Virus record (IMG/VR): IMGVR_UViG_3300032236_001850 | Span: 240,392-304,391 of that record | DNA from: a virus | DNA: 64,000 nt | Direction: 5' to 3' (one strand) | In this document: piece after piece, positions 2 through 58,372 of the stretch | Layout: every line of letters begins with the position of its first letter | How positions within the stretch are numbered: the stretch's first letter is position 1 | The notes under the pieces: generated by a model | The model's input: only the letters and a program-made list of their open reading frames with translations | Told to the model about the DNA's origin: nothing | Database searches by the model: none | Position numbers and translations under genes: made by a program

Positions 2-646
2 AATAAAATAAATAGCAACATACTAGATAGAAAAAATGACATCATAGAAAATCTTCAGGATAATATACATGACGTATTCTCAGAAAATTTAAAATTGCTA
101 GAGATTGAAAGCTATAATAATTGGATAGATAACCTTGATCCGGCAATCATAGAGATGATGTCATCAAAACTAATCGGAGGTGAGGCTGTAACCTCACCTC
201 CTCAATTGTATAAAATATACAAATGTAACCAATTAAAAACAACATACGAGAAATTAAATTCATTTGAATATGATATAGCTATAAGAGTCAGACCAGATCT
301 TATATTTATGGAAACACCAGAAATGACCAATCTTGATAAGATAAATCACATAAATTTTGGAATAAAAGGAGCATATTGGCCAATGAGAATCTTTGATATA
401 TTTTTCTACTCAAATAATGATTCTATGAATAAGATATCAAATTCATGGCTATCAATTTTAGAGGATTCGAATAACCCAATCAATAATGAATTAGATCCAA
501 GAGATGCATGTAGCTTACTATACATAAACGCAATTAAGAATAATATAGGTGTTAACGATCTACAAAAAAGAATATGTGGGGTTTATAGGGGTGAGGGTTA
601 TGAACAATTTGTCAGAAGCATAGAATGGATGAACAATGGAAAATAG
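2..646 (+). CDS. Putative glycosyltransferase-like protein (5' end cut by window edge)
   Basis: The frame is open from base 2, so the gene starts upstream and only its last ~214 codons are present. A TTG at 95 lies in frame, but nothing marks it as the start. The visible part has a hydrophobic strand followed by the motif R-V-R-P-D-L, a pattern seen in some glycosyltransferase-like proteins of polysaccharide loci, then aromatic-rich sequence (YWPMRIFDIFFYS). No catalytic DXD can be assigned with certainty. The 3' end overlaps the next gene by 11 bases. The function is inferred mainly from its place at the head of a sugar-nucleotide and glycosyltransferase block. Confidence 0.5.
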   Translation, partial: NKINSNILDRKNDIIENLQDNIHDVFSENLKLLEIESYNNWIDNLDPAIIEMMSSKLIGGEAVTSPPQLYKIYKCNQLKTTYEKLNSFEYDIAIRVRPDLIFMETPEMTNLDKINHINFGIKGAYWPMRIFDIFFYSNNDSMNKISNSWLSILEDSNNPINNELDPRDACSLLYINAIKNNIGVNDLQKRICGVYRGEGYEQFVRSIEWMNNGK

Positions 647-2531
647 CATGAATATAATAATACCAGTTTGCGGGGAAGGAAAGAGATTCTCTGAAGAGAA
701 TTATGACCACCCAAAACCACTAGTTAGAGCTCTAGGAAAACAAATTATATTCTGGAATCTCCAGAATATAATAACAGATGTCAATGACACAATATTTATA
801 ATATACAGAAAAGAATTTGAGATTTATAATTTTGAATCGTTGCTTAATAACGAGTTTCCAAAATATAACTTTAAATATGTAAAAGTAGCAAATAATACTA
901 GGGGAGCTGCAGAAACAGTATTGTGCGCAATTGATATTATGGATGACGATGAGCTAGAAAGGCAAACTTTAATCCTTGATTCGGATAACATATACCAAAA
1001 AGATATAGTGGATGTAACTAGAAGATTGGGTGGAAATATAATTTTTTTTACTGTTGATAAAAACGAGCTACCTATATTTTCATATATAAAAACATCCAAT
1101 GATTCATCCGTTATCGATATAAGGGAGAAAGAAAAAATATCGGACAATGCCTGTACTGGTGCATACGCATTCACAAATTCTAAGATATTGAGAGAATATT
1201 CAATAGATCTAATAAAAAGTGGGGAAACCCAGAAAAAAGAATATTATATATCAAGCGTATATAAAAGCATGCTGGAGAATGGTGAGAATATAAAGTCAAT
1301 AGAATCTACCGATTTTGACTGTTTAGGTACACCAAATCAACTTAAAACATTTTCCTCAAGTTTCAATGACAAAATGCAGAAATGTAGATTTTGTTTCGAT
1401 CTTGATAACACTTTGGTAACATATCCGGAGAAAAGTGGTGATTATTCAACGGTCAAGCCGATTAAAAAAACAATAGATTTTCTAAATTTTTTACATTCAC
1501 TTGGACACACTATCATAATCCACACTGCTAGAAGAATGAAAACACATAAGGGAAATGTAGGAGCTGTACAAGCAGATATAGCGTCAATCACTCTTAAAAC
1601 ATTGGAAGACTTTGGAATAAATTATGATGAAATATATTTCGGTAAACCCTATGCAAATTTCTATATAGATGATCTTTCATTAAATCCATCCAGAGATCTA
1701 GAAAAAGGTACAGGATTCTATAACATACATCCAGAAACCAGAAGTCACAATAAAATAGAAATTCTTGAAAATTCAATAAAAAAATATTCCTCAAATATAT
1801 CAGGAGAAAAATACTTCTATCAAAATATACCCTCAGATGTAAAGAATTTTTTTCCATCAATATTAGACAGCGGTGAAAATTACATAACGATAGAAAAAAT
1901 AAAGGGTATACCATTATCTTTTATAAATTCTAATAAAACGTTAACTAAAGATATAATATTTTCAATATTGAATCACATAGAAGTCTTACATTCAGCAAAA
2001 AAATGTGAGGAAGAAATTGACATCTATGAAAACTATTCAAAAAAACTTAGAGAAAGAATTTTAAATTATGATACAAAAAAATTTAATAATTCAGAAAAGA
2101 TCATAAATCATAACTTAGAATATCTTGAAAATTACGAGAAAGAAAAAAGGGGAAGATTAAGTGTTATACACGGGGATCCAGTTTTTAGTAATATATTAAT
2201 AGACAATAATAATCAAATAAAATTCATAGATATGAGGGGTAAAATAGGTGATACACTAACAATATTTGGTGATTCATTATACGATTATTCCAAAATATAT
2301 CAATCTATCATAGGATATGATTTTATTCTCATGGATAAAGAAATAGATTCACCTTATATAGAAAGGAATAAAGAAATATTTTGCAGCTGGATACTGGAAA
2401 AATATAATGATGAGTGTATAACCATATTATCAGATATAAAAGAAATAACAAAAAGTCTAATATTATCACTGTTACCAATCCACGATAATGAAAAATGTAT
2501 CCATTATTATAAACTTATAGAAATGCTATGA
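636..2531 (+). CDS. Trifunctional sugar/alcohol-phosphate nucleotidyltransferase - HAD phosphatase - APH/choline-kinase-like fusion
   Basis: Three domains are visible in 631 residues. Residues ~5-245 are a nucleotidyltransferase: the N-terminal strand IIIPVCGEGKRF followed by HPKPLV matches the GxGxRF...KPL signature of sugar-phosphate nucleotidyltransferases. Residues ~246-370 are a HAD phosphatase: FDLDNTL is the catalytic DxD loop, followed by HTARRM and YIDDLS. Residues ~375-631 resemble aminoglycoside phosphotransferase/choline kinase: VIHGDPVFSNIL is the catalytic loop and FIDMRG the metal-binding step. Such a chain could phosphorylate and NDP-activate a small alcohol or sugar for glycan decoration; the substrate is unknown. 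A second ATG at 648 starts directly before the first strand and is an equally good start. Confidence 0.75.
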   Translation: MENSMNIIIPVCGEGKRFSEENYDHPKPLVRALGKQIIFWNLQNIITDVNDTIFIIYRKEFEIYNFESLLNNEFPKYNFKYVKVANNTRGAAETVLCAIDIMDDDELERQTLILDSDNIYQKDIVDVTRRLGGNIIFFTVDKNELPIFSYIKTSNDSSVIDIREKEKISDNACTGAYAFTNSKILREYSIDLIKSGETQKKEYYISSVYKSMLENGENIKSIESTDFDCLGTPNQLKTFSSSFNDKMQKCRFCFDLDNTLVTYPEKSGDYSTVKPIKKTIDFLNFLHSLGHTIIIHTARRMKTHKGNVGAVQADIASITLKTLEDFGINYDEIYFGKPYANFYIDDLSLNPSRDLEKGTGFYNIHPETRSHNKIEILENSIKKYSSNISGEKYFYQNIPSDVKNFFPSILDSGENYITIEKIKGIPLSFINSNKTLTKDIIFSILNHIEVLHSAKKCEEEIDIYENYSKKLRERILNYDTKKFNNSEKIINHNLEYLENYEKEKRGRLSVIHGDPVFSNILIDNNNQIKFIDMRGKIGDTLTIFGDSLYDYSKIYQSIIGYDFILMDKEIDSPYIERNKEIFCSWILEKYNDECITILSDIKEITKSLILSLLPIHDNEKCIHYYKLIEML

Positions 2532-3175
2532 TAAACAAAATATTCGAAAAAATATACTGCATTAATCTCGATAAAAGAACAGATCGATGGGAGAGATGTA
2601 AAAAAATATTTCAGGATAATAAAATAGAGGTTGAAAGAATATCAGCAATGGAAGGTGAATCCATACAACTTGATGTACCAAATGATTTAAAACCAGGGGA
2701 ACTTGGTTGTATGTTTTCACATCTTAATATTATCAAAAATGCAAAGGATAATGGAATAGAATCTGTGCTTATATTCGAGGATGATGTGGAATTTGCTGAA
2801 GATTTCAATAATCTATTCGAAGCATATATGAAACAAGTACCAGAAGATTGGCAACTTTTATATCTCGGAGGAAATCATTCTTTATGTAATATACATATGA
2901 GAACCGATGATATTCCACCAGTTCAGATTTCCGAAAATGTATATAAAATAAACAGAGCATTCTCATGTCATGCATATGCAGTTAGAAATAATATGTACGA
3001 GAGGTTAATAGAAAAAGCAAACCACGCATCATACAATCTTCCAATAGATGTATTATACTCCCAATTGCAGTATGATTCGAGATCCTATCTAATCAGACCG
3101 CATTTATGTTGGCAAAGAGAAGACTATTCAGATATACAAAAAGAAAATGTAAATTACGAATTTTTAAGATATTAA
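2528..3175 (+). CDS. Glycosyltransferase family 25 (LPS-type)
   Basis: This 215-residue protein matches GT25 (LPS beta-galactosyltransferase type) end to end: INLDKRTDRW near residues 12-21, GELGCMFSH at 57-65, and FEDDVEF with its acidic EDD at 84-86, the presumed metal/nucleotide-sugar site. Length is usual for the catalytic domain. It would add a sugar from a nucleotide sugar to a growing glycan in the host cytoplasm. Its ATG overlaps the stop of the preceding gene by 4 bases, indicating translational coupling. Donor and acceptor cannot be told from sequence. Confidence 0.85.
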   Translation: MINKIFEKIYCINLDKRTDRWERCKKIFQDNKIEVERISAMEGESIQLDVPNDLKPGELGCMFSHLNIIKNAKDNGIESVLIFEDDVEFAEDFNNLFEAYMKQVPEDWQLLYLGGNHSLCNIHMRTDDIPPVQISENVYKINRAFSCHAYAVRNNMYERLIEKANHASYNLPIDVLYSQLQYDSRSYLIRPHLCWQREDYSDIQKENVNYEFLRY

Positions 3176-3176
3176 A

Positions 3177-3986
3177 ATGTTTAGATTAAATATGAAATCG
3201 AGCGAATTCTCTACTGGTACATGTTCAACCGGGAACAGAGAACTGAATAAATTCACATGGGATTTCTTCTCGTCGGAAAACAACATCTCAGTATACCTAG
3301 ATTCCGATGCAAGAATGGGTATAGAGAATAAAAATGACGGAAAGATAAAATTTCTATGGACCATAGAATCGAGATGTTTTAATAATGGAACATTCGATTT
3401 CATCAAAAATAATATGAATGAGATATTAGAAACATATGAAATGATATTTACATATAATGATGAACTTCTAAAATATAGTGATAAATTCAAATGGATATTT
3501 GCTATGGGTTCATGGATAAAAAATCCAGAGATTCATAAAAAAACAAAGTTATTGTCCATGATAACATCAAACAAAATAGGAACCGAACAACAAATATACA
3601 GGTACAATTTTGCAATAAATAATATTGGGAAGTTTGATATTTATGGTAGAGGATTTAGAGAAATAGTAGACAAGGAAGAGGGACTAAACGATTATATGTT
3701 TTCCGTATGCATAGAAAATGATACCCTTGACACATATTTCACCGAAAAGATATTAGATTGCTTTGCAACTGGAACAATACCAGTATATAAGGGTACAAGA
3801 AATATAGTTAATCATTTCAATTCTGATGGAATTATATTTCTTGATGATATCGAATTATCAGAACTTACTCCAGATCTGTATAATTCGAAATTATCAGCAA
3901 TTGCGGACAACTTTGAAAGGGTTAAAAATTATATGTTACCAGAGAATTATATGTATGACGAATATCTAAAATTTTTTAACAAGTGA
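3177..3986 (+). CDS. Glycosyltransferase family 10 (alpha-1,3-fucosyltransferase type)
   Basis: Residues ~175-205 carry the hallmark of GT10 fucosyltransferases: an acidic/Asn pair (EN at 180-181), then YFTEK (187-191), then A-T-G-T-I-P-V-Y-K-G. This block binds GDP-fucose in known family members. The 269-residue length fits the catalytic domain without the membrane stem seen in eukaryotic enzymes. The same cluster encodes the two enzymes that convert GDP-mannose to GDP-L-fucose (5978-7902), so donor synthesis and transfer are encoded together. The acceptor is unknown. Confidence 0.82.
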   Translation: MFRLNMKSSEFSTGTCSTGNRELNKFTWDFFSSENNISVYLDSDARMGIENKNDGKIKFLWTIESRCFNNGTFDFIKNNMNEILETYEMIFTYNDELLKYSDKFKWIFAMGSWIKNPEIHKKTKLLSMITSNKIGTEQQIYRYNFAINNIGKFDIYGRGFREIVDKEEGLNDYMFSVCIENDTLDTYFTEKILDCFATGTIPVYKGTRNIVNHFNSDGIIFLDDIELSELTPDLYNSKLSAIADNFERVKNYMLPENYMYDEYLKFFNK

Positions 3987-4693
3987 AAAAATATCTTATA
4001 AATTATGCTGATCTTTCGCATACATTGGCACAAAAAAGAAATACAACATCCGGGTATGATGTGGGTGGATTTGATGAAATAATCGAATACAATAGAAACA
4101 GCATAGATCCAGTATTTTTAGAATCAAATAAAACAATATTCGACAGCTCAAGAGGTGCTGGATATTGGTTATGGAAATCCTATATAATAAATAAAACACT
4201 TGAATCGATGAGCGAGGAAGACGTATTGTTTTATTCGGATTCGGGTATAACATTCATAAATAATATAGATCCACTCATTGAGAAATTAAATAGATCAGAG
4301 AATGGAATATTGTTATTCGAACTGGAGGATTACCACACAAATAAAAAATGGACAAAGCGGGATACTTTTTACTACATGGGATGTGACTCAGCAGAATACT
4401 CAGACAGGACACAAATACTTGCAAGCTATATTATATTAAGAAAAAACAACTTCACAGTATCATTTATAAAAGAGTGGCTTAATTTCTCACAGGATTCTAG
4501 AATCATAACAGATTCACCGAATGAATGTGGACTACCAAACTACGAAGAATTCATAGATCATAGACACGATCAAAGTATATTAAGTCTACTCGGAAGAAAA
4601 TACCAAATAGATACACTTCCCGATATATCTCAATACGGAGAAGGAAGAAACACAATGAAGCAAATAATAGATCATAATAGAAATAGAGATTAA
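3983..4693 (+). CDS. Putative capsular-polysaccharide-type glycosyltransferase, family uncertain
   Basis: Starts with GTG overlapping the previous TGA by 4 bases. The protein (236 aa) has the motif RGAGYWLWKSYII near residue 54, then FYSDSG, which looks like the DxD-type acidic turn of a GT-A fold, and HRHDQSILSLL near the C-terminus, a common end motif of GT-A-like enzymes. Proteins with GxGYWLWKP-type motifs occur in capsule and O-antigen loci and in large phages, usually annotated as hypothetical or glycosyltransferase. The position between GT10 and GT2 genes supports the role; the sugar is unknown. Confidence 0.55.
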   Translation: MKKYLINYADLSHTLAQKRNTTSGYDVGGFDEIIEYNRNSIDPVFLESNKTIFDSSRGAGYWLWKSYIINKTLESMSEEDVLFYSDSGITFINNIDPLIEKLNRSENGILLFELEDYHTNKKWTKRDTFYYMGCDSAEYSDRTQILASYIILRKNNFTVSFIKEWLNFSQDSRIITDSPNECGLPNYEEFIDHRHDQSILSLLGRKYQIDTLPDISQYGEGRNTMKQIIDHNRNRD

Positions 4694-4695
4694 TC

Positions 4696-5397
4696 ATGAA
4701 AAAAATATCAATAGCTATACCAACATCAGGGTATAAGGGTAATGGTGATAAATATCTTGGAGATCTTCTGGAATCAATAAGAAAGCAAACATACAGGAAT
4801 TTCAACATAGTCATATCAGATCACTGTCAGGACTCATTAATAGAGAATAAGATTGCAGAGTTTAGTGACATGGAAATAATATATCATAAAAATCCAAATG
4901 ATATAGGAAATAGTCCATTAAATCTAAACAAAGCAATAGAACTCTGTGATGGTGAGATAATAAAAATAATGTTCCAGGATGATGTTTTTTTCTCAGAAAA
5001 TTCACTTGCTATCATATCGGAAAATCTAGGAAATTCTGAAAAAATGTGGCTTCTCAACGGGTGCAATCATATGGACGATGGTACAAATGTAACCTACGGT
5101 ACAATGGTACCCCGACATAACCCAAATTTATTAATGGGTGCAAATACAATAAGCTCACCGTCTGTATTATCAATTAGAAAAGAATGTGAAGTTAGATTCG
5201 ATGGAAACTTGACTTATTTTATGGATGTTGAATATTACTATGCAATGTGGGAAAAATACGGGGATCCTGTAATAATAGACGAAACACTTATAACAAATAG
5301 AAATAGTAACAACTCGATATCCGGATCGGTAAATGATTGGAGCGAAATATCAAACATTGAAAGAGAATATTGTCGTAAAAAATATAATAAACAATGA
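4696..5397 (+). CDS. Glycosyltransferase family 2
   Basis: The first 45 residues show the GT2 Rossmann start: ISIAIPTSG, then LGDLLESIRKQTYRNFNIVISDH (Q-T-Y-x-N-x-x-I-x-x-x-D), followed near residue 93 by FQDDVF, the metal-binding DD of GT-A enzymes. It is 233 residues long, the size of a bare catalytic domain with no membrane segment, so it is a cytoplasmic transferase. It lies 2 bases after the preceding gene and overlaps the next by 4 bases (ATGA), within one operon. Confidence 0.82.
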   Translation: MKKISIAIPTSGYKGNGDKYLGDLLESIRKQTYRNFNIVISDHCQDSLIENKIAEFSDMEIIYHKNPNDIGNSPLNLNKAIELCDGEIIKIMFQDDVFFSENSLAIISENLGNSEKMWLLNGCNHMDDGTNVTYGTMVPRHNPNLLMGANTISSPSVLSIRKECEVRFDGNLTYFMDVEYYYAMWEKYGDPVIIDETLITNRNSNNSISGSVNDWSEISNIEREYCRKKYNKQ

Positions 5398-5978
5398 TAA
5401 CTTTTGTAATTCCTAGTATAGGAAGGCCAACATTAAAAAGATCACTAGAATCTCTAATAAATCAGAAGAATAAAAACTGGAAGTGTATTGTTGGATTTGA
5501 TGGCATAGGAGAAGAATCTGTAGACAATAATTTATTAGTCGATGATCCAAGAATAAGTTATCTCTATTTCAATGAAAAGATTGGACAATCAGCAGAGCAT
5601 GGAAACGGTGGTATGGTTAGGAATAGAATAATGAGCCATGTTGATACTGAATGGATAGGGTTTCTTGACGATGATGATTGCTTATACGAAAACTATACAG
5701 AGGAGCTAGAGCTATGCAATCCTGATGATCTTGATTGTGTAGTTTTTAGAATGAGATATGAAAATAATCCATCAGTCGTATTACCACCTCCTGGAATGAA
5801 TATATTAGCACAAAATCTTGTTGGTATATCTTTTGCTGTTAGAAACGATTTCATAAAAAATAAAAACATCGAATTTATAAATTCCAACTCGGAGGATTTT
5901 AACTTTCTTTCCTCTGTATTAGCAAACGATGCAAGATTGAAAATATCTGAAAGTATAACATATTTAGTTTGTAGTTAA
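5394..5978 (+). CDS. Glycosyltransferase family 2 (short)
   Basis: A second GT2-type protein: TFVIPSIGRPTLKRSLESL at the N-terminus, WKCIVGFDG at the second strand, and FLDDDDCLYENY near residue 88 as the acidic DxD site. At 194 residues it is short and ends soon after the nucleotide-binding half, so the acceptor-binding part is reduced. It is coupled to both neighbours by ATGA and TAATG overlaps. The sequence is only distantly like the preceding GT2, so the two are probably not a recent duplicate. Confidence 0.72.
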   Translation: MITFVIPSIGRPTLKRSLESLINQKNKNWKCIVGFDGIGEESVDNNLLVDDPRISYLYFNEKIGQSAEHGNGGMVRNRIMSHVDTEWIGFLDDDDCLYENYTEELELCNPDDLDCVVFRMRYENNPSVVLPPPGMNILAQNLVGISFAVRNDFIKNKNIEFINSNSEDFNFLSSVLANDARLKISESITYLVCS

Positions 5979-6904
5979 TGAAAAAAATATTGGTAACAGG
6001 AGCTTATGGCTTAGTTGGATCACAGTTTACTGGGAACGAATACGAAAGAATTGGTTCGGGTGATCTGAATCTACTTAATCAAAAGTATATAGATGAACAT
6101 TTCAAACGGTCGGAAAAATTGGATGAATTACCGGAAGGTATAATTCACTGCGCAGCTAAAGTTGGCGGGATACAAGGTAATATGGAGGGACAGGGTAAAT
6201 TCTTTTATGAAAATATTTCAATGAATACTTCAATAATAGAATCAGCAAGGAAATTCGGCATAAAAAAATTCATTGCTTTCCTATCAACTTGCGTTTTTCC
6301 AGATGCGATTGAATATCCATTAACACCGGATAAAATACATCTTGGACCACCACATCCTTCTAACTACGCATATGCATATGCTAAAAGAATGGCAGAGGTA
6401 CAAATAAGAGCATATAGAGAACAATATGGTGTGAATTATTTTAGCGTAATTCCGTGTAACATATACGGACCTTCAGATAATTATAATCTTGAATCAGGTC
6501 ATGTTATACCAATGCTAATACACAAGATGTATCTTGCAAAAAAGAATAACACCGAATTTAAAGTTTGGGGATCAGGAACACCGCTAAGAGAATTCATATT
6601 CTCTGAGGATGTTGCAAGATTGACACGGTTGTTGTATGACAATTACGAAGGATCAGATCCAGTAATACTTTCAACATCAGAGGAAATATCAATAGGATCC
6701 GTTGTTGAAATCATTGCAGAGATAATGGAATATGATGGTGAGATTATATTTGATAAAACCAAACCAGATGGGCAATACAGAAAGCCAAGTGATAATTCAG
6801 TGATAAAGGAATTATTTCCAAATTTTGAATTTACTCCAATCAGGAAGGGATTGAAAAAATCGATCGATTGGTTTAATGAAAACTATCCAAAAGTTAGACT
6901 ATAA
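5978..6904 (+). CDS. fcl: GDP-L-fucose synthase (epimerase/reductase)
   Basis: An extended short-chain dehydrogenase/reductase of 308 residues. Residues 1-15 hold the NADP-binding glycine motif (ILVTGAYGLVGS), and the catalytic Ser-Tyr-Lys set is visible as LSTCVFP and Y-x-x-x-K in NYAYAYAKRM. The HLGPPHPSN stretch is typical of Fcl/WcaG. It converts GDP-4-keto-6-deoxy-D-mannose to GDP-L-fucose with NADPH. It lies 5 bases upstream of the dehydratase gene that makes its substrate, forming a complete two-step pathway from GDP-mannose. Confidence 0.9.
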   Translation: MKKILVTGAYGLVGSQFTGNEYERIGSGDLNLLNQKYIDEHFKRSEKLDELPEGIIHCAAKVGGIQGNMEGQGKFFYENISMNTSIIESARKFGIKKFIAFLSTCVFPDAIEYPLTPDKIHLGPPHPSNYAYAYAKRMAEVQIRAYREQYGVNYFSVIPCNIYGPSDNYNLESGHVIPMLIHKMYLAKKNNTEFKVWGSGTPLREFIFSEDVARLTRLLYDNYEGSDPVILSTSEEISIGSVVEIIAEIMEYDGEIIFDKTKPDGQYRKPSDNSVIKELFPNFEFTPIRKGLKKSIDWFNENYPKVRL

Positions 6905-6909
6905 TAAAG

Positions 6910-7902
6910 ATGGAAAATAAAAAAAGAGCACTTATAACGGGAATCAATGGCCAGGATGGAAGTTATCTTGCCGAATTCCTAATTTCAAGGGGATATGAGG
7001 TATTTGGAACAATAAAAAGAAACTCAGTTGCGGAGAATCAAACTGTAAGATTGGATTCAATATATGACAAAATAAAAGATAATCTAATATACGCAGATCT
7101 TCTTGACGTGCCGTCATTATTACATGCACTAAAAATATCAGATCCACAGGAAGTCTATAACCTAGCTGCACAGTCACACGTAAGAATATCCTTCGATCAA
7201 CCAGTCTATACAGCACAAGCAACAGGTATAGGTACATTAAATCTACTGGAGGCAATAAGATTACACAATCCAAAAATAAAGGTGTATCAGGCATCATCTT
7301 CGGAAATGTTTGGAAATTCTATAGATGATGACGGCTATCAAAGGGAGACAACCCCAATGAATCCAGTTTCTCCGTACGGATGCGCGAAGGTCTTCTCGTA
7401 TAATATTTGTAGGAACTACAGGAATTCTTACGACATGTTCATAAGTAACGGTATCCTGTTCAATCACGAATCACCTCGTAGAGGCACAAATTTTGTCACT
7501 AACAAGGTTGTAAAGACCGCGGTGAGGATTTATATGGGATTGGAAAAAAAGCTTGTCTTAGGCAATCTAAATGCGACGAGAGATTGGGGACATGCAAAAG
7601 ATTATGTGGAAGCAATGTGGATGATGTTACAGCAGGAAAAATCTGGAGATTATGTTTGTTCAACTGGCGTCTCGCATTCAGTGCAAGATCTTGTTGAGTA
7701 TGTTTTTGGAAAGCTTGGTCTAGATTGGAAACAATTCACTGAAACAGATCCCAAGTTTTTAAGACCAGAAGAACTGGAGGATCTTAAAGGTGATTCTACT
7801 AAACTTATAAAAGAAACTGGATGGCAACCTAGATACACATTCGAATCAATGTTGGATGAAATGATAGAATATTGGTTAGATTATTATATGATTCCACAGT
7901 AA
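6910..7902 (+). CDS. gmd: GDP-mannose 4,6-dehydratase
   Basis: Extended SDR protein of 330 residues, full length for Gmd. The N-terminus has ALITGINGQDGSYLAEFL, the Gmd form of the NADP-binding loop; VYNLAAQSHV, YQASSSEMFG (catalytic Ser/Thr-Glu region) and PYGCAKVF (Tyr-x-x-x-Lys) follow, then FNHESPRRG, the GDP-mannose-binding block. It forms GDP-4-keto-6-deoxymannose, which feeds the upstream fucose synthase. It is the last gene of the glycan operon and is followed by a strong terminator. Confidence 0.93.
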   Translation: MENKKRALITGINGQDGSYLAEFLISRGYEVFGTIKRNSVAENQTVRLDSIYDKIKDNLIYADLLDVPSLLHALKISDPQEVYNLAAQSHVRISFDQPVYTAQATGIGTLNLLEAIRLHNPKIKVYQASSSEMFGNSIDDDGYQRETTPMNPVSPYGCAKVFSYNICRNYRNSYDMFISNGILFNHESPRRGTNFVTNKVVKTAVRIYMGLEKKLVLGNLNATRDWGHAKDYVEAMWMMLQQEKSGDYVCSTGVSHSVQDLVEYVFGKLGLDWKQFTETDPKFLRPEELEDLKGDSTKLIKETGWQPRYTFESMLDEMIEYWLDYYMIPQ

Positions 7903-38407: not shown

Positions 38408-38415
38408 GATATATA
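38408..38415 (+). promoter_or_regulatory. Putative late promoter box GATATATA
   Basis: ATGGATATATAATCAATAAA, 22 bases before the ATG at 38438. Confidence 0.65.
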
Positions 38416-38437
38416 ATCAATAAAAAAAAAGTAAACC

Positions 38438-41011
38438 ATGGACTTTATAAATCAAGTTAAAAAAGTAAAAGAATCAACAAAATCTCCTGAGGTGAAGGCT
38501 TTATGTGAAAGTTACCTTAGTGGTGGTACAGTTTCTAGAGAGAAATTAGTACTTTTGATTAGTGAGAATAACGCATCCGTGGAATCAGATAATACTGGAA
38601 ATAACATACAAAATCATATGGATTTAATAAAAAGAGAAGAGTCGGAGATCTCTAAAAAAGCTGCTGCTTCCCTAATGGAATCATGGGGAGGATTAGGAAA
38701 ATCTACAACAGGTAGTAATTCTGGATCTTATAACGGTAAACCGAATGAGACCAAAAATGATGAAAACTCTCTTTATGAAAGTATTAGTAGTTTAGAATCT
38801 TTAGATCCTGCTGCAAAATCATTTATTGAAACACAGAGTATCAAAAATCTTGGTGTTAGAGGTGCTATAGAGAAAATAAAAGAATCTTCAATATACACAT
38901 ATCCTAAAGCAAAAATGGTTTGCGAACAATATCAGTACCTTTTGGAAAACAAAGGCATTCCTGAATTTTCACTTATTCATAATTTTGTAAATGAACTTGC
39001 TTCATTTTCTTGGGATTCTTCAATAGCTCCTATTGCTGAGGAACTTAAGGAAAAAACTAAAAAATTATCTAGAGAAATAGAGGTTGCTAAAGTTTTAGAA
39101 TCTATTAAAGGAAGCGGAAGCTCTTCATTCTACTCTGAACTTTCTGATACCCTTAATACCTGGTTGGTTTCTGAGAGCAAATCTAATGGATTGTTAATTA
39201 GAAACATCTCTAAGTATTCATTTAACCCAGTAGTAAAAAATCTTATTAATTTCTTAAATATTCAAGAAAGTACAGATAGTAGAAAATTAGAGGTTCCTGT
39301 TAATGTACAAGGTGAATCTACGGTTTCTAAAGTTTATTCTCCCGTTCTTTTTGAAGGTGGAAGAACATTCTTCTTTATTGGCGGATGTATATTCGAAGCA
39401 ACTTCAAATTCATTAAGAAAGTTAGCAAAATCTGAGTATTCTGCTTTATCAGAAGGTTATTTAAGACTTTCTTTAACTACAATGAAACCACACGTTAAAA
39501 TAAACGAATCTGGTATTTCTGTTAAACTGGGTAACAAGATAGTTACTATGGTTGAAGAAAATGATAAAGTTTCTGTTTATCTTGGAAAAGATAAACTTAG
39601 ATTTGGTGACACAATAGGTTTAGCTAAGATCGTTGGTCTTGAATCCTCATCATATTTCGGAGTTAATGAATCTGAGGCTGTTGATGATATCATGACACTT
39701 TATACAAACTATTCAAATGTTGTTGAATTGGATTTCGCTAAATCGATAACTTCCAATGTTTATGAAGGACTTGCTATTAATCTTTTCAAATGGAATGGAC
39801 AAATTTATCTTCAGAAGATAAACGAGGCTATGAGAGAAAATTCACTTTATGAAGTTAATGGATCTCAAGCAGTTGCGATGGTTAAAAACTTTATGAGATA
39901 TGATATATCTGAGGGATTAACAGAATTCTTAGAAGGTGAATCTAGAATTAAATCAGTAATGATTAATGATAGAAACAAGGTTCTTGAAAATATTTCTAAG
40001 ATAGAAGGAGAAATCAATAAGGTTGAATCTCTTATGGAATCAAATCCATTATACAAAAACTCTAAGGAAATAAGAGTTGCTCATTCTATGTTGGAAAAAG
40101 AATTACAATCGCTTAAAACTAAATGGAATCAAATAAACATAGAAATCCAAAAAATTGAGGAAGATATAGAGCTTCAGCCAAATCCGGATTTATTTGAGGA
40201 TCAAAAATTCAATATTGGTTCTTTTGTGAAAGTTAAAGAATCTGGGGAAACTGGTAAAGTTATCTCTATAGATGGATCATCGGGAAGATACACAGTTCTT
40301 TTAGACAGCGGTAAAACTGCTGATCATCAAATAAACGAGCTTGCTGATTTAGACGAGGCTTTAAACAAAGCTGCTGATGATAATGCAGAATCTGCTGAGG
40401 ATAACAATGATGATGCTGGAGAAGTTAAAGAATCAAACAACCTTAATAAATCTCAGCTTCCTATAGGAGAGCAAAAGAAAATGCTTAAAAAACTTGCAGG
40501 AATGCACGGATTCTCAAAAGCACCTGGTGCTAATAACGAGAAAATAGATATGGACGGTGATTCATTACATGGATACAACAGAACAATGAACGAGGGTAAA
40601 GCTGATCTTAAGAACGGAACACCTAAAACTAATTATTCTAAAGCTCCTGGTAACGATAAAAAAGCTCCCGCTTCAACTCCTAAAAATAAAACATTAGCAA
40701 GTGCTCCTAATAAAAAAGGAAATTCTAAGCTTACTAAAGGAACAACAGATCCTAATTTTTCTGATGCTCCTGGTGATGATGTATTAGGCAAAGGTAAAAA
40801 TGCAAATCCAAAAAAGAGTTTAGCTGTTGCTCCTGGTGATGGTGCTAGAATAAAAGCTAAAGAATACGGTAAGGATAAACTTAGAGAAGCACCAGATGAT
40901 AAAAACGGTGATTTAAGATTTGACGTTTCTGGAGTTAGAGATGAAAAAGAGTACAAAGCTGGATACAATCTTAAGGATCTTAAAGAATCTGAAGAAGTAA
41001 AAAAAAACTAA
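38438..41011 (+). CDS. Large virion-associated protein of unknown role, possible -1 frameshift extension to 41169
   Basis: 857 residues in the zero frame. The N-terminal ~200 are helical, ~280-480 mixed, ~591-635 look like a KOW/SH3-type barrel (FNIGSFVKVKESGETGKV), and ~685-830 are Lys/Gly/Pro-rich with repeated (S/F/V)-x-APG motifs. The gene ends A9-C-TAA. Slipping one base back on A_AAA_AAC (41002-41008) would add 53 codons up to the TAA at 41167, including another FAKAPTGKD motif like those upstream. So the gene either uses programmed frameshifting or has suffered a homopolymer error or mutation. Its driving by a late promoter suggests a virion or assembly protein. Confidence 0.65.
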   Translation: MDFINQVKKVKESTKSPEVKALCESYLSGGTVSREKLVLLISENNASVESDNTGNNIQNHMDLIKREESEISKKAAASLMESWGGLGKSTTGSNSGSYNGKPNETKNDENSLYESISSLESLDPAAKSFIETQSIKNLGVRGAIEKIKESSIYTYPKAKMVCEQYQYLLENKGIPEFSLIHNFVNELASFSWDSSIAPIAEELKEKTKKLSREIEVAKVLESIKGSGSSSFYSELSDTLNTWLVSESKSNGLLIRNISKYSFNPVVKNLINFLNIQESTDSRKLEVPVNVQGESTVSKVYSPVLFEGGRTFFFIGGCIFEATSNSLRKLAKSEYSALSEGYLRLSLTTMKPHVKINESGISVKLGNKIVTMVEENDKVSVYLGKDKLRFGDTIGLAKIVGLESSSYFGVNESEAVDDIMTLYTNYSNVVELDFAKSITSNVYEGLAINLFKWNGQIYLQKINEAMRENSLYEVNGSQAVAMVKNFMRYDISEGLTEFLEGESRIKSVMINDRNKVLENISKIEGEINKVESLMESNPLYKNSKEIRVAHSMLEKELQSLKTKWNQINIEIQKIEEDIELQPNPDLFEDQKFNIGSFVKVKESGETGKVISIDGSSGRYTVLLDSGKTADHQINELADLDEALNKAADDNAESAEDNNDDAGEVKESNNLNKSQLPIGEQKKMLKKLAGMHGFSKAPGANNEKIDMDGDSLHGYNRTMNEGKADLKNGTPKTNYSKAPGNDKKAPASTPKNKTLASAPNKKGNSKLTKGTTDPNFSDAPGDDVLGKGKNANPKKSLAVAPGDGARIKAKEYGKDKLREAPDDKNGDLRFDVSGVRDEKEYKAGYNLKDLKESEEVKKN

Positions 41012-41169
41012 GCCGCAACTTCTATTTCGCTCCTAAGGGCGAGAATCAGGATAAACCTGGACAACCATTCGTTCAATCGATGAAGGGAAAATTCGCTAAA
41101 GCACCCACGGGTAAGGACACCAATCCCAAGGATGAGGAGGAAGATGATTCAGGCGAAAAGAAACAATAA
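41002..41169 (+). other. Candidate -1 ribosomal frameshift site and extension frame
   Basis: A_AAA_AAC is in phase with the zero frame directly before its stop. The -1 frame stays open for 53 codons and continues the APG-type composition. A 6-bp stem UCGCUC/GGGCGA with loop CUAA lies ~19 bases downstream (41028-41043), further than usual. Confidence 0.5.
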
Positions 41170-41174
41170 TTTAT

Positions 41175-41208
41175 AAGAATGTAGTATTTTTTACTACATT
41201 CTTTTTTT
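41175..41208 (+). terminator. Rho-independent terminator
   Basis: Perfect 12-bp stem AAGAATGTAGTA / TACTACATTCTT, loop of five T, T tract. It lies just after the end of the -1 extension frame (41169), which fits that frame being the true gene end. Confidence 0.9.
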
Positions 41209-42160: not shown

Positions 42161-43795
42161 ATGGCAGGTTTTGTAGATAATAATAAACCATCAGAGTCAC
42201 CGGTTATACAGAGGATAAGGGAATCAGTTAAAAAATTGAGTACCTTTGGTATGAAGTATGATGACATGGTAATAAGAAATTCGCAAGCTGTCGGTGTAAC
42301 TGAAGCTGCATTTCTTAACAAGAATAAAGCTAACGTTGAAGACGAAAGCATGCTATGGTCTCTAGCCAAGCAGGATATTACATCCAGACAATTCATAGGT
42401 TACTTTGACAAGGATTATAAGGGAAAAAGAGATTTTCTAAGAATGTTTTCTTTGAATCCTGAAGTTGAATGGGTTCTTGATACCATTTGTGACGAGGCTA
42501 TAACATATGATCCAGCAAACTTTTTTGCGTACCCAGATTTTATAGATCTTTCCGATGTAAACGAAAAGGTAAAAGACGAGCTTTATGACGTTTATAAGAA
42601 CCTATACGATATATGGGGATTCTCCGATGATATAACAGCATGGCAATATTTTAGACAGTTTATAATTGATGGATTTCTAGCTTTTGAAATTGTTTACGAT
42701 GACAGCGGAAAAAATATAGTTGGCTTCAAGGAACTTGATCCTATAACATTAATTCCTAGCGTTGAAAAACAACTTGATGGAAGTTTTGTTAGTACATGGA
42801 CACAATATCCGCAAGATCCTAAAAAGAAGCGTACTCTCTACGATCCACAAATAATCTATATCTCATATGCTAAGGGTAACTCCATATCGAGAGTTAGTTA
42901 CATTGAAAGATTAATAAGACCTTATAATATATTAAGAATTATAGAATATACTAGGGTTATATGGTCTGTAATGAACGCTTCATTCAAATTGAAAATGACC
43001 GTTCCAATTGGTACCAAATCTCAACAGAAAGGCATGCAAACTCTGGGTGAACTTATGAGTGTATATAAGGAGGACATACAACTTAATGATGAGAGTGGTG
43101 AACTTACAGTTGATGGTAGACCTAAGATTCAATTTTATAAAAATTACCTTATGCCATCAGGTGTTAATGGTACACCAACAATAGAACCAATTAATACGGA
43201 GGGACCTAATCTTAACGATCCAGCTCCTCTTACATATTTCTTTGATAAATTCATACTTGAATCTAAGGTTCCACCTTCAAGATTTCATAACCCAGATGGT
43301 GGTAGCACTTCACCATATTCAAATGGAGCTGAAGGTCTAGATAAAGAGGAGATAAGATTTTATAAATTTATTTCTAGACTGAGATCAGTGTTTCAGGAGA
43401 TATTGGTTAAACCTATGTGGATACAAATGGTTAAAAAATATCCTCATTTAGAAAAGGATTTTCTTTTCAAAAGTCAACTTGGACTTAATTATTGGTCTGA
43501 TAATCCATTTAAGGAAAATCAGGAAATTGGTAAAATGACTCAAAGAAAAGAAACAATTACCGGTCTTGGTGCTCTTATGAACGATGACGGTAAACCTTTC
43601 TTCTCGAATGCTTTTCTTATAGAGGAATTTTTAGGTATGTCTAAACAAGACATAGCAGCAAACAAAGAGGCTAAAGAAAGAAAAATAAAGGAAAAAGCAG
43701 CAGCTGAGAAAAAAGCAGCAGGAGCAACTGGAGCAGCAGGCGGCGGGGGTAAAAAAGAAGGCGGTGAAGAAAAACCACCACAAGTAACACTATAG
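42161..43795 (+). CDS. Portal protein, copy 1 (T4 gp20-like)
   Basis: 544 residues (T4 gp20: 524). Portal features: VEWVLDTICDEAITYD near residue 105, FRQFIIDGFLAFEIVYDD, IEYTRVIWSVMNASFKLKMTVPIG and the ELTVDGRPKIQFYKNYL wing, followed by EEIRFYKFISRLRSVFQEILVKPM, which matches gp20's clip/stem region ([23 protein letters not shown]; both quoted from family memory). The C-terminal tail is Ala/Gly/Lys-rich and ends PPQVTL. It forms the DNA-entry ring at the head vertex. The next gene is a full-length paralogue. Confidence 0.9.
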   Translation: MAGFVDNNKPSESPVIQRIRESVKKLSTFGMKYDDMVIRNSQAVGVTEAAFLNKNKANVEDESMLWSLAKQDITSRQFIGYFDKDYKGKRDFLRMFSLNPEVEWVLDTICDEAITYDPANFFAYPDFIDLSDVNEKVKDELYDVYKNLYDIWGFSDDITAWQYFRQFIIDGFLAFEIVYDDSGKNIVGFKELDPITLIPSVEKQLDGSFVSTWTQYPQDPKKKRTLYDPQIIYISYAKGNSISRVSYIERLIRPYNILRIIEYTRVIWSVMNASFKLKMTVPIGTKSQQKGMQTLGELMSVYKEDIQLNDESGELTVDGRPKIQFYKNYLMPSGVNGTPTIEPINTEGPNLNDPAPLTYFFDKFILESKVPPSRFHNPDGGSTSPYSNGAEGLDKEEIRFYKFISRLRSVFQEILVKPMWIQMVKKYPHLEKDFLFKSQLGLNYWSDNPFKENQEIGKMTQRKETITGLGALMNDDGKPFFSNAFLIEEFLGMSKQDIAANKEAKERKIKEKAAAEKKAAGATGAAGGGGKKEGGEEKPPQVTL

Positions 43796-43799
43796 TAAC

Positions 43800-45452
43800 A
43801 TGGCAGGATTTTTAGACTTTTTAAAACCCAATCAAGCAGCTTTGGGTAACATACTTAAAAATTTGGGTAGCATATCCAAATTTGGTATGCAGTACGATGA
43901 CATGGTTGTTAGAAATTCGCAGGCTATTGGTAGAACCGAGGGTGCTTTTTTCAATCAGGAAGGAACAGGATATACTAAGGATAGCGCATTTCAATGGACA
44001 GCTTCGTATCATGACACTAAGGTAAGAAAATACATAGCTTATTTTGATAAATCATATGGAGAAAAAAGAGATTATTTAAGAAAGTTTTCCATAAATGGTG
44101 AGATAGAATTCATACTGGATATCATAACAGATGAGGCCATAGTATATGACGATAGAAACTATTTTGCGCAGCCTTCATTTTCCAATCTTGATCTTAAGGA
44201 CAAAGTTAAGGAGAGGGTAAGCACACATTTCAATAGACTTTATAATATATTTCAGTTCCAGAATACAGTATTGGGCTGGCAATATTTCAGACAATTTATA
44301 ATAGATGGATTCTTGGCTTTTGAGATAATCTATGATAATAAGGGAAAGGAGATAATAGGATTCAAGGAACTTGATGCTATTTCTTTACAACCAACGGTAG
44401 AAAAAGTTGGTGAAAATGAATATAAGCAGTTCTGGATACAATATCCAAGTAATCCACAAATGTTTAGAAAACTTACTAATGAACAAGTTATCTACATATC
44501 ATATGCGAAGGGTAATACTATATCAAGAACAAGTTACGTTGAAAGACTTGTAAGATCTTATAACATTCTAAGAATTATGGAGAATTCTAGAGTTATCTGG
44601 AACGTAATGAATGCCAGTTATAGAATGAAATTCATAATTCCCATAGGAACACAGTCTCCACAAAAAGCCATGCAAACTTTGGGACAACTTATGTCCAACT
44701 ATAAGGAAGAGATTAGCATAAATGATTCATCCGGAGAATTAACAGTAAACGGTAGACCTAAGGTTCAATTCTATAAGAATTATTTATTTCCCGAACAGAA
44801 TGGAGTTTCACCAGAGATATCTTCTCTGAATCCAGCTGGACCTGATTTCAATGTTATGGATAATGTTCTTTATTTCTTCAATAAATTAAAAATGGATTCT
44901 AAAATCCCATATGCTAGATTTGCTGCAAAAAATGGAACACCTGCTAATTACCAAATAGCAATAGATCAGCTTGAAAGAGATGAAATAAGATTCGAAAAGT
45001 TTCTAAGAAGACTTCGTTCAATATTCCAGGAAATCCTGGTTAAACCACTCTATATACAAATGTGTTTGGAATACCCAGAATTGGCTAAAGATAGAAATTT
45101 TAAAACCAACATAGGTTTAAATTTTAATAGAGATCTTGAATTCGAGGATCAGGTTGAAATGACTAATCTTAAAAAGAAAAGTGAATTTGTAACTGCTCTT
45201 TCAGATTTAAAGGTAAAAGCTGGGGAGGAGGATGTACCTTATTTCGATAATGACTTTCTGATACAGAGATTTTTAGGTATGTCTCCTGATCAATTGAAAT
45301 TGAACGAGGAATACAAGAAAAAAGAGGAAAAAGCCGGAGCTGCACCTCCTGCTGCTGGCGGAGAATCAGCACCCGCTGCCGGATCGGCTGCTCCCGCGGG
45401 AGAAACCCCACCAGCAGGTGGCGAAGCAAAAGCACCACAGGTAACACTATAA
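43800..45452 (+). CDS. Portal protein, copy 2 (T4 gp20-like paralogue)
   Basis: 550 residues, about half identical by eye to copy 1 along the whole length: FGMQYDDMVVRNSQAIG, YFRQFIIDGFLAFEIIYD, VIWNVMNASYRMKFIIPIG, EIRFEKFLRRLRSIFQEILVKPL, and the same end APQVTL. No part of the core is missing, so both look functional. It starts 4 bases after copy 1. Whether they form mixed rings, alternative rings, or serve different stages is unknown. Confidence 0.9.
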   Translation: MAGFLDFLKPNQAALGNILKNLGSISKFGMQYDDMVVRNSQAIGRTEGAFFNQEGTGYTKDSAFQWTASYHDTKVRKYIAYFDKSYGEKRDYLRKFSINGEIEFILDIITDEAIVYDDRNYFAQPSFSNLDLKDKVKERVSTHFNRLYNIFQFQNTVLGWQYFRQFIIDGFLAFEIIYDNKGKEIIGFKELDAISLQPTVEKVGENEYKQFWIQYPSNPQMFRKLTNEQVIYISYAKGNTISRTSYVERLVRSYNILRIMENSRVIWNVMNASYRMKFIIPIGTQSPQKAMQTLGQLMSNYKEEISINDSSGELTVNGRPKVQFYKNYLFPEQNGVSPEISSLNPAGPDFNVMDNVLYFFNKLKMDSKIPYARFAAKNGTPANYQIAIDQLERDEIRFEKFLRRLRSIFQEILVKPLYIQMCLEYPELAKDRNFKTNIGLNFNRDLEFEDQVEMTNLKKKSEFVTALSDLKVKAGEEDVPYFDNDFLIQRFLGMSPDQLKLNEEYKKKEEKAGAAPPAAGGESAPAAGSAAPAGETPPAGGEAKAPQVTL

Positions 45453-56407: not shown

Positions 56408-58372
56408 ATGTACAAAATGCCAACAACTAAAAAATTAAACGAAGAATTAGTTTTCATTCTAGAAAGACAATCATCCGTTCTTGAATCTTCAAGAAACGAT
56501 AATGATGATTATGTCCTTGAAGGTATTGCTGCTGTTTTCGGTAAAGAGAACAACAATAATAGAATATATGAAGAAGCTGAATATCTTCCTCACTTAAACT
56601 ATCTTAATGAGAAAATAGCTCAGAGAAGATTGGTTGGAGAATTGGATCATCCTGAAAAATTTGACGTTTCTCTTAAAAACATTTCCCATATAATCGAAAA
56701 ACTTGATTATGATAAAAATGGAAGAGAAATTAAAATTAAAGTTAGACTTTTAGATACACCAATGGGTCAGATAGCTAAAAATCTTGTTGATGCAGGAGTT
56801 CCTCTTTCTATTTCTTCCAGAGCAGCTGGTTCTGTTGGTAATGATAAAAAAGTTCAAATTAAAAAAATATTCACATATGACCTAGTTGCTGATCCTGGTT
56901 TTCAAGACGCACAACTAGAAAGAGTATATGAAAGCGCTGGTTATCATTTTAGTGATTTCTTCGAAATGAGAAATAAAAGTGTAACTAACGATCTACTTTG
57001 TGTAAATGAATCATTAGGTCTAAAAAATGATTCAGATGTGAAGATATATAAAGTTGAAAATAACGAAGAATTTAATAACCTCGTATCAAAATCAGATAAA
57101 AATAAGACGATCCTCATGGAGAATAATGAATTTGTGACTGCAGAAGAATTAAACCAATATTCTGTTTTCTTGAAAAAAGAGATGGAAGCAATGAATTCTA
57201 AAATTGCAGAAATTAAAGAACAAAAGCAAGTATTAACTGAATCTAGCTTTGAAGATAAAAATTCAAACCTTGAAGAAAGAGTTGCTAAATTAGAAAAATA
57301 TTCTGAGTATTTAGCTGAGAATTTAGATAATGCTATTAAGTATGGTGAATACCTTGCTGAAAACTTAGACGAGAGTATAAGTTATAGCAAATATTTAGCT
57401 GAAAACTTAGATAAGAATATTTCTTATTCTAAATATCTTGCTGAAAATGTTGACAAATCAATTTCTTATACTGAGTACGTTGCTGAATCAACAGATAAAG
57501 GTATAGAGTACACTAAATATCTTGCTGAGAAATTAGATCAGAACATTCAATACTCTGAGTACTTAGCAGAAAACTTAGACAAAGGTATTTCTTATTCTGA
57601 ATATCTTGGTGAGAACTTAGACAAAGGTATAGCTTACTCTGAGTACCTAGCAGAAAAATTAAATGATGGTATCGAGTATTCCGAATACCTTGCAGAGAAT
57701 CTTAACAAGAATATCCAATATTCCGATTACCTAGCAGAAAATGTTAATAAAGGTTTAGATTATTCTGATTACTTAGCAGAAAAATTGAAAAAATCAATCT
57801 CTTACAGTGAATATATAGCTGAGACAGTTAATACAACTAAATACAAAGCTACTGACTCATTAAGAGAAAGTGTAGATCTTTCAGCTTCAGCAGGATTAAA
57901 TGAATCAGGATTTGCTGGAGATTATACAGATCTTACAACAAGAATAGATAGTTTGATAGAATCAGTTAAAACACAAAAAACTGAGTCAAATATAAATGAA
58001 GCTTCTAAATCAATGAAGCAAACAGCCAACACACAAAAGGCAGACGAAGTTCTTAACGAAAATGAGAACAAAAACAAAACAGGTCTTAATTTTATTGACA
58101 CAATGCCTGAAGAATACACACAAGTTTGGGAATCACTTACTGAAGGACACAAGCAATCAATTATTGCTCAAAGTAACTTCTATAGATTAGATACACCTTA
58201 CCAAGTGAAAAACTTCTGGTCAACACGTCAATTAGGAACTGCACCAGTTGGAGTTCAAAAATTAGACGAGAGCGAAAATATCGCAATGCCTAATGCACAA
58301 ACAAGCGGTTATTCTAACGAATATATGAACGCTATTGCTGCTGCATTAGAGAAAAAATTTCAAACAAGATAA
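56408..58372 (+). CDS. Prohead protease (T4 gp21-like) fused to a coiled-coil scaffold domain
   Basis: 654 residues. Residues ~35-170 are a gp21-type serine protease: RLVGELDHPEKF with H81, and VPLSISSRAAGSV with the nucleophile Ser among 134-137. Residues ~295-480 are about 12 copies of a 14-residue unit (NLDKGISYSEYLAE consensus), two heptads each, so a coiled-coil rod. The C-terminal ~100 residues form a small domain (TMPEEYTQVWESLTEGH). T4 has separate protease (gp21) and core (gp22) genes; here both functions seem to be in one chain. LNE, INE-A and LNE-N sites in the chain suggest self-cleavage. The next gene is the capsid protein. Confidence 0.82.
   Translation: MYKMPTTKKLNEELVFILERQSSVLESSRNDNDDYVLEGIAAVFGKENNNNRIYEEAEYLPHLNYLNEKIAQRRLVGELDHPEKFDVSLKNISHIIEKLDYDKNGREIKIKVRLLDTPMGQIAKNLVDAGVPLSISSRAAGSVGNDKKVQIKKIFTYDLVADPGFQDAQLERVYESAGYHFSDFFEMRNKSVTNDLLCVNESLGLKNDSDVKIYKVENNEEFNNLVSKSDKNKTILMENNEFVTAEELNQYSVFLKKEMEAMNSKIAEIKEQKQVLTESSFEDKNSNLEERVAKLEKYSEYLAENLDNAIKYGEYLAENLDESISYSKYLAENLDKNISYSKYLAENVDKSISYTEYVAESTDKGIEYTKYLAEKLDQNIQYSEYLAENLDKGISYSEYLGENLDKGIAYSEYLAEKLNDGIEYSEYLAENLNKNIQYSDYLAENVNKGLDYSDYLAEKLKKSISYSEYIAETVNTTKYKATDSLRESVDLSASAGLNESGFAGDYTDLTTRIDSLIESVKTQKTESNINEASKSMKQTANTQKADEVLNENENKNKTGLNFIDTMPEEYTQVWESLTEGHKQSIIAQSNFYRLDTPYQVKNFWSTRQLGTAPVGVQKLDESENIAMPNAQTSGYSNEYMNAIAAALEKKFQTR
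57290..57830 (+). repeat. 42-bp (14-residue) repeat array, about 12 copies
   Basis: Encodes repeats of (N/K)-(L/V)-(D/N)-K-(G/S)-I-x-Y-(S/T)-(E/D/K)-Y-(L/V)-A-E. Codons vary freely between copies, so selection keeps the protein pattern. Confidence 0.88.

What the first reader, a model, noticed from the sequence alone, without database searches (positions are those of the whole stretch)
41000..41169. Candidate programmed -1 frameshift at A_AAA_AAC before the stop of the 38438 gene
The classic slippery heptamer is in phase, directly before the zero-frame TAA. The -1 frame stays open for 53 codons and continues the same Lys/Gly/APG-type sequence, and the terminator follows right after the -1 stop. 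Two end forms of one protein could be made, as in tail chaperones or DnaX. A weak stem-loop lies about 19 bases downstream.
Basis: partly seen in the sequence, partly recalled or inferred. Interest (0 to 1): 0.68.

Follow-up and report, generated by a model that had tools for sequence, protein, structure and literature searches.

The report
Conserved slippage site in phage gene
In a widespread group of uncultured huge phages, one head-assembly-type gene ends in an evolutionarily frozen run of nine A's at which the gene-reading machinery evidently slips, so that one gene should yield a short and a longer version of the same protein.

Summary
A9 at 40999-41007, then C, then the zero-frame TAA (41009-41011); a 53-codon -1 extension (41008-41166), then a terminator. 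Of 75 distinct relative sites (core down to ~40% identity), all carry an A run of exactly 9 (69) or 10 (6) before the homologous extension. On a 68-taxon tree, third codon positions change 15.7 times on average; the three inside A9 never change. The zero-frame stop is kept as TAA, TGA or TAG. The extension evolves as protein in the -1 frame. Sequencing error and a separate start codon are excluded.

The base after the run varies freely, A_AAA_AAC is not avoided elsewhere and no RNA structure is conserved. What is fixed is run length, while long A runs are strongly avoided in other genes. This favours RNA-polymerase slippage (about 0.55) over ribosomal -1 slippage (about 0.38). Related lineages rewired the frames, all keeping A9/A10.

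The protein is probably a prohead core/scaffold protein: 5-fold enriched in T4-type prohead-protease motifs, top of 50 ORFs. Programmed production of two C-terminal forms: about 0.93, no expression data.

The parts
38408..38416 (+). GATATATAA, late-promoter-like motif about 20-30 bases before the start codon
   Evidence: 7 in window vs 2.4 expected; also just before ORFs 20319, 36272 and the prohead protease 56408; a GATATATA element precedes this gene in the relatives checked
38438..41011 (+). zero-frame gene, 857 aa (short form): helical and beta core of about 640 residues with an SH3/KOW-like piece (593-626), then a disordered KAPG-rich linker of variable length
   Evidence: relatives in viral contigs
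40979..40990 (+). last [LIMV]xE site (LKE|S), T4-type prohead-protease motif, 7 residues before the end of the short form
   Evidence: a [LIMV]xE lies 7-12 residues before the end of the zero-frame product in 69 of 69 relatives; motif enrichment
40999..41007 (+). slippage site: run of nine As (contains in-phase A_AAA_AAA 40999-41005 and A_AAA_AAC 41002-41008)
   Evidence: 9 or 10 As in 75 of 75 distinct relative sites; zero third-position changes on tree; only A9 inside a gene in the 434-kb record
41009..41011 (+). zero-frame stop TAA directly after the slippage site
   Evidence: kept as TAA, TGA or TAG in nearly all relatives
41008..41169 (+). -1 frame extension, 53 codons ([LV]SRNFYFAPK..NQN.PG..F....GK.SKAP.GK plus acidic tail) and its stop 41167-41169
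   Evidence: conserved as protein: substitutions at codon positions 1/2/3 = 331/217/774; alignment A4; no ATG/GTG/TTG start in frame in 69 of 69
41175..41203 (+). terminator-like hairpin followed by a T run, right after the extension
   Evidence: near-identical in L001-L003

Best explanation
The gene makes two forms of one protein by programmed slippage at a fixed run of nine As. Normal reading gives a short form ending ...VKKN-stop. On a fraction of messages the RNA polymerase inserts one extra A while copying the run (A9 to A10). Ribosomes then read straight into the -1 frame and add the conserved 53-residue tail before the transcript ends at the terminator. The protein is probably a prohead core/scaffold component cut by the phage's T4-type prohead protease, and the ratio of tailed to untailed copies is what is under selection. 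Steps: conservation and coding of both forms are shown by comparison; polymerase rather than ribosome as the slipping machine, the prohead role and the meaning of the ratio are inferred.
For: 75 distinct sites all A9/A10. No change in the three third positions of the run against 15.7 on average elsewhere, although the first base of the codon before it changes 11 times and the base after the run 7 times. -1 frame coding signature 331/217/774. Zero-frame stop kept through TAA/TGA/TAG changes. No start codon for a separate gene. For the polymerase: the fixed feature is run length, not the heptamer. Runs of 9 or more As are avoided in other genes of these phages (2 seen, 26 expected) while A_AAA_AAC, A_AAA_AAT and A7 runs in any phase are not. 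No conserved RNA structure. Runs of more than 7 As are known polymerase-slippage sites (PMC3711429), A_AAA_AAC is poor on E. coli ribosomes (PMC4066793), and an A11 run 28 bases before a stop works in this way in Citrobacter tssM1 (PMC4256274). For the prohead role: [LIMV]xE[SAG] 23 seen vs 4.3 expected; next in the window are the protease-scaffold and the major capsid protein.
Against: No RNA or protein data. Every A9 also contains an in-phase ribosomal slippery heptamer A_AAA_AAA, and in-frame A_AAA_AAG/A_AAA_AAA are somewhat avoided elsewhere (ratios 0.4-0.7), so the ribosome can slip here too. Avoidance of long A runs could be partly mutational. The codon phase of the run is constant in nearly all relatives, which polymerase slippage does not require. 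E. coli RNA polymerase slips less on poly-A than on poly-T (PMC6260861). The core has no match of known function, and the protease motif is short and was sharpened after looking at the sequence.
Confidence: 0.55

Rival explanations
1. Programmed -1 ribosomal frameshifting: tRNA-Lys pairs slip on A_AAA_AAA (40999-41005) or on A_AAA_AAC/G (41002-41008), with the stop codon next to it. Same two proteins, different machine.
For: In-phase slippery heptamers in nearly all relatives; A9 gives A_AAA_AAA built from the third base of the preceding codon, which would explain why that base is always A; stop directly after the site; A_AAA_AAA and A_AAA_AAG somewhat avoided elsewhere.
Against: No conserved stem-loop or pseudoknot. 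Lineages ending in the efficient A_AAA_AAG (L015, L039, L059, L087) still keep all nine As. A7 runs in the slippery phase are not avoided (65 seen, 53 expected) whereas A9 and longer are, in every phase.
Confidence: 0.38
2. Sequencing or assembly error in a homopolymer: the gene is simply continuous.
For: Homopolymers are error-prone; ten As would make it in frame here.
Against: The run, the stop and the out-of-frame extension recur in 75 distinct sequences from many metagenomes, with the stop changed to TGA or TAG in some. The A run in the same gene's 5' leader varies in length across the same contigs while this one does not.
Confidence: 0.01
3. The extension is a separate small gene with its own start, or is reached by re-initiation.
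For: In one lineage (L052-L054 = L114-L116) the extension really is in its own ORF, starting ATG TCA TCA.
Against: In 69 of 69 other sites there is no ATG, GTG or TTG in the -1 frame between the previous stop and codon 12 of the extension, and that frame is open for only a few codons upstream.
Confidence: 0.02
4. Contingency (phase-variation) tract: DNA-level gain or loss of an A switches the tail on or off in the population.
For: A9 tracts can mutate by replication slippage.
Against: Run length is 9 in 69 and 10 in 6 of 75 distinct sites, the A10 sites lying in shifted codon contexts; a switching tract should be found in both states among close relatives.
Confidence: 0.04

Closest known systems
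Citrobacter rodentium tssM1 transcriptional frameshifting (PMC4256274)
   Same: Poly-A run shortly before the zero-frame stop, no stimulators, extension encoded out of frame, short and long forms; there both forms and their ratio are needed.
   Different: A11 in a secretion gene of one bacterium; here A9 fixed across a whole family of huge phages, in a probable head-assembly gene, and the mechanism is unproven.
Thermus and Chlorobi dnaX (poly-A transcriptional realignment; PMC3711429, PMC5009743)
   Same: Homopolymer of about 7-10 As giving two C-terminal forms; Chlorobi dnaX has two ORFs as here, Thermus has the long form in the zero frame, as in L049/L050/L111.
   Different: Unrelated protein and function.
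Phage C-terminal frameshift extensions: T3 major capsid, Lactobacillus A2, Listeria A118/A500/PSA (PMC5009743)
   Same: Phage structural protein with an extended second form; indifference to the exact frame arrangement.
   Different: Those extensions are mostly Ig-like domains and the ribosome shifts; this extension has no predicted fold and the site is an A9 run.
Lambda G/GT tail assembly chaperone frameshift (PMC5009743)
   Same: -1 product in a set ratio for morphogenesis.
   Different: No tail-chaperone homology or location; here a prohead-protease-type substrate next to a late sigma factor, a head-closure protein and the portal genes.
T4 prohead core proteins and gp21 protease (PMC9026906)
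   Same: Many L/I-x-E sites; late head gene; the same phage has an S77 protease-scaffold and a Gp23 capsid.
   Different: No sequence or fold match of this protein to gp22, gp67, gp68 or Alt was found here.

Membership tests
Programmed -1 ribosomal frameshifting | slippery heptamer in phase | tested here: met
   A_AAA_AAC and A_AAA_AAA in phase in the window; A_AAA_AAN in nearly all relatives
Programmed -1 ribosomal frameshifting | downstream RNA structure or upstream Shine-Dalgarno stimulator (common, not obligatory) | tested here: not met
   no consensus structure, hairpin not shared; no conserved purine-rich stimulator seen upstream in the alignment
Programmed -1 ribosomal frameshifting | trans-frame protein made from an unedited message | not testable with these tools
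   needs proteomics plus cDNA
Programmed transcriptional slippage | homopolymer of eight or more A/T kept by selection | tested here: met
   A9/A10 in 75 of 75; no third-position change
Programmed transcriptional slippage | messages with extra or missing A | not testable with these tools
   no RNA data
Conserved recoding (either mechanism) | downstream frame under protein-level selection, no independent start | tested here: met
   331/217/774 changes by codon position; no start codon
T4-type prohead core protein | multiple gp21-type L/I-x-E cleavage sites | tested here: met
   23 vs 4.3 expected for [LIMV]xE[SAG]; [LI]xE 26 vs 12; control motifs near expectation
T4-type prohead core protein | homology to gp22, gp67, gp68, Alt or internal proteins | tested here: not met
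   no meaningful PHROGs, Pfam, PDB-sequence or PDB-fold match
T4-type prohead core protein | present in proheads and cleaved in virions | not testable with these tools
   needs mass spectrometry
Phage tail assembly chaperone (G/GT) | lies before the tape measure gene, chaperone homology | tested here: not met
   neighbours are late sigma factor, head closure and portals; no chaperone hit

The most novel reading that the evidence does not exclude
A widespread clade of uncultured huge phages uses RNA-polymerase slippage at a length-locked A9 run to set the ratio of two forms of a prohead core/scaffold protein, while purging long A runs from the rest of its genes; lineages that rewired the frames (long form in frame, other phase) kept both products available, and one split the gene in two.
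Probability: 0.45. Interest if true: 0.75.

Novelty: new member of a known kind. Interest (0 to 1): 0.62.

Why it matters
It appears to be an undescribed recoding site (none found in the papers searched) and an unusually well conserved one for a phage: a nine-base homopolymer without a synonymous change on a 68-taxon tree whose other third positions changed about 16 times each. It gives two protein products to an unnamed gene next to the late sigma factor and portal genes of huge phages, and it is a natural test bed for telling polymerase slippage from ribosomal slippage. Gene callers will cut off a conserved C-terminal part of this protein in these genomes.

Tried and rejected
Sequencing error, separate gene with own start, phase variation (see rivals). 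Conserved RNA pseudoknot or hairpin: none. Function of the core by PHROGs, Pfam, PDB sequence and PDB fold: no useful match; only a weak MSSS SH3-like piece and uncharacterised phage proteins such as one of Tenacibaculum phage PTm1. The extension model has no fold. A pattern scan of bacterial genomes found no relative. Lak phages (23% identity) and LR756500 (25%) have a core homologue, but no slippage site or extension was found there. Resemblance of AAGTCGTAAC after the run to a stretch of 16S rRNA (recalled, not tested here) was taken as chance because its third bases vary. The extension alone as 39 letters was too short a query; the alignment worked.

Full report
WHAT IS THERE. The window lies in a 434,509-base virus record. 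It carries T4-type head genes: terminase, tail sheath, late sigma factor, head closure, two portal genes, an S77 prohead protease fused to a scaffold-like repeat, and a Gp23-type capsid. The gene at 38438-41011 encodes 857 aa and ends GTA AAA AAA AAC TAA. The A run is 40999-41007. The -1 frame continues from 41008 for 53 codons to its stop at 41167-41169, and a terminator-like hairpin follows at 41175-41203.

CONSERVATION. Three close relatives (80-85%) have the same run, stop and extension. Wider scans gave relatives down to about 40% identity in the core. An extension profile found 209 loci (several overlap on the same contigs) with 75 distinct 100-base site sequences: 69 with exactly nine As and 6 with exactly ten; none shorter or longer. 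The linker before the site varies from almost nothing to over 100 residues, yet site and extension stay. Three contigs have apparent indels or internal stops further upstream in the gene (L038, L051, L184); these were set aside.

SELECTION ON THE RUN. On a tree of 68 canonical sites, third codon positions of 523 gapless core codons change 15.7 times on average; none except Met/Trp columns is unchanged, and seven invariant-Lys columns change 7-15 times. In the run, the third base of the codon before Lys-Lys never changes from A (codons TCA, TTA, GTA, CTA, CAA: first base changes 11 times), nor do the two Lys third bases. This tree was limited to sites with the standard arrangement (Lys AAA, Lys AAA, AAN, stop), so the two Lys third bases are partly fixed by that choice; the preceding third base is not, and the unfiltered count of 75 sites shows the same A9/A10.

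SELECTION ON THE EXTENSION. Read in the -1 frame, substitutions by codon position are 331, 217 and 774, a coding pattern. No ATG, GTG or TTG lies in that frame between the previous stop and codon 12 in 69 of 69 sites. So in those lineages the extension is evidently translated, and only as a fusion.

EXCEPTIONS THAT INFORM. In L049/L050/L057/L100 and L111 the run is followed by CCCCAGTCG, so the long form is in frame, and a -1 slip would give a short form ending KKKPQS-stop; this is the dnaX layout turned round. L021 has the run in another codon phase and still reaches the extension by -1. L046 has A10 and one more codon before the stop. In L052-L054 the core ends without the run, and the extension is a separate ORF that still contains A9. 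These lineages are 74-94% alike at DNA level around the site, so inertia can explain part of it.

WHICH MACHINE SLIPS. In 434 other genes of these phages, runs of seven As are not avoided in any codon phase. Runs of eight are mildly avoided, and runs of nine or more are nearly absent in all phases: in the 382 relatives' genes 2 were seen against 26 expected. In the window the only A9 in a gene is this one, against 9 expected; in the whole record there are seven A9/T9 runs and only this one is inside a gene. A_AAA_AAC and A_AAA_AAT are not avoided. The synonymous shuffle does not separate selection from mutational loss of long runs. The A run in the gene's own 5' leader varies in length (7 to 10) among relatives, unlike the slippage run. 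No RNA structure is conserved. Literature: runs of more than 7 As serve transcriptional realignment (PMC3711429); A_AAA_AAC is inefficient in E. coli (PMC4066793); Citrobacter tssM1 shows an A11 run before a stop giving 20-25% long form by extra As in the message (PMC4256274). I therefore favour the polymerase, but A9 always holds an in-phase A_AAA_AAA, so ribosomal slippage is a serious rival.

WHAT THE PROTEIN IS. Domain and fold searches give no function. The model has a moderately confident core to about residue 640 and a disordered tail. T4 gp21 cuts after L/I-x-E (PMC9026906). The motif [LIMV]xE[SAG] occurs 23 times against 4.3 in shuffles. Of 50 ORFs tested, this gene ranks first, the protease-scaffold second and the capsid protein third, and control motifs are near expectation. 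Distant relatives L072, L087 and L199 show the same. A [LIMV]xE lies 7-12 residues before the end of the short form in 69 of 69, so cleavage there would release about 10 residues from the short form and about 60 from the long. A GATATATAA element precedes this gene and the protease gene. I infer a late prohead core or internal protein; the ratio of tailed copies may tune assembly. This role is inference.

STATUS. Programmed two-form expression: about 0.93. Polymerase slippage as the main route: about 0.55; ribosomal: about 0.38. No paper found describes it, within an open-access library only.

Noticed in passing
42161-43795 and 43800-45452: Two tandem, diverged portal genes (both PHROG 213).
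   Followed up: partly
38422-38430 and the same place in relatives: A run of 7-10 As in the 5' leader just after the GATATATAA motif, about where transcription would start; its length varies between relatives. Possible slippage at initiation.
   Followed up: partly
window genes and relatives: Runs of 8 or more As inside genes are strongly avoided (2 seen, 21 expected in the window), while runs of 6-7 are not.
   Followed up: yes
20292, 36244, 38408, 56387: GATATATAA about 20-30 bases before ORF starts: candidate late promoter of this phage.
   Followed up: partly
56408-58372: Prohead protease fused to a long repeat region (YSEYLAENLDK-type repeats), rich in L-x-E motifs.
   Followed up: partly
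41014-41016 and relatives: First Arg of the extension in close relatives is mostly CGT/CGC although CGY is about 2% of Arg codons in the window; reason unknown.
   Followed up: partly
L052-L054, L114-L116: Lineage in which the extension has become a separate small ORF (MSSNKILDFFSYINEENADVKKNLSRNFYFAPK...) right after the core gene.
   Followed up: partly
L005 3951-5207 and 7537-9153 (LR756500): A TnpB-like ORF just before the core homologue and a homing-endonuclease-like ORF sharing its end with the sigma-factor gene; by eye only.
   Followed up: no
636-7902: Run of genes that look like sugar-nucleotide and glycosyl transfer enzymes (by eye, not tested).
   Followed up: no
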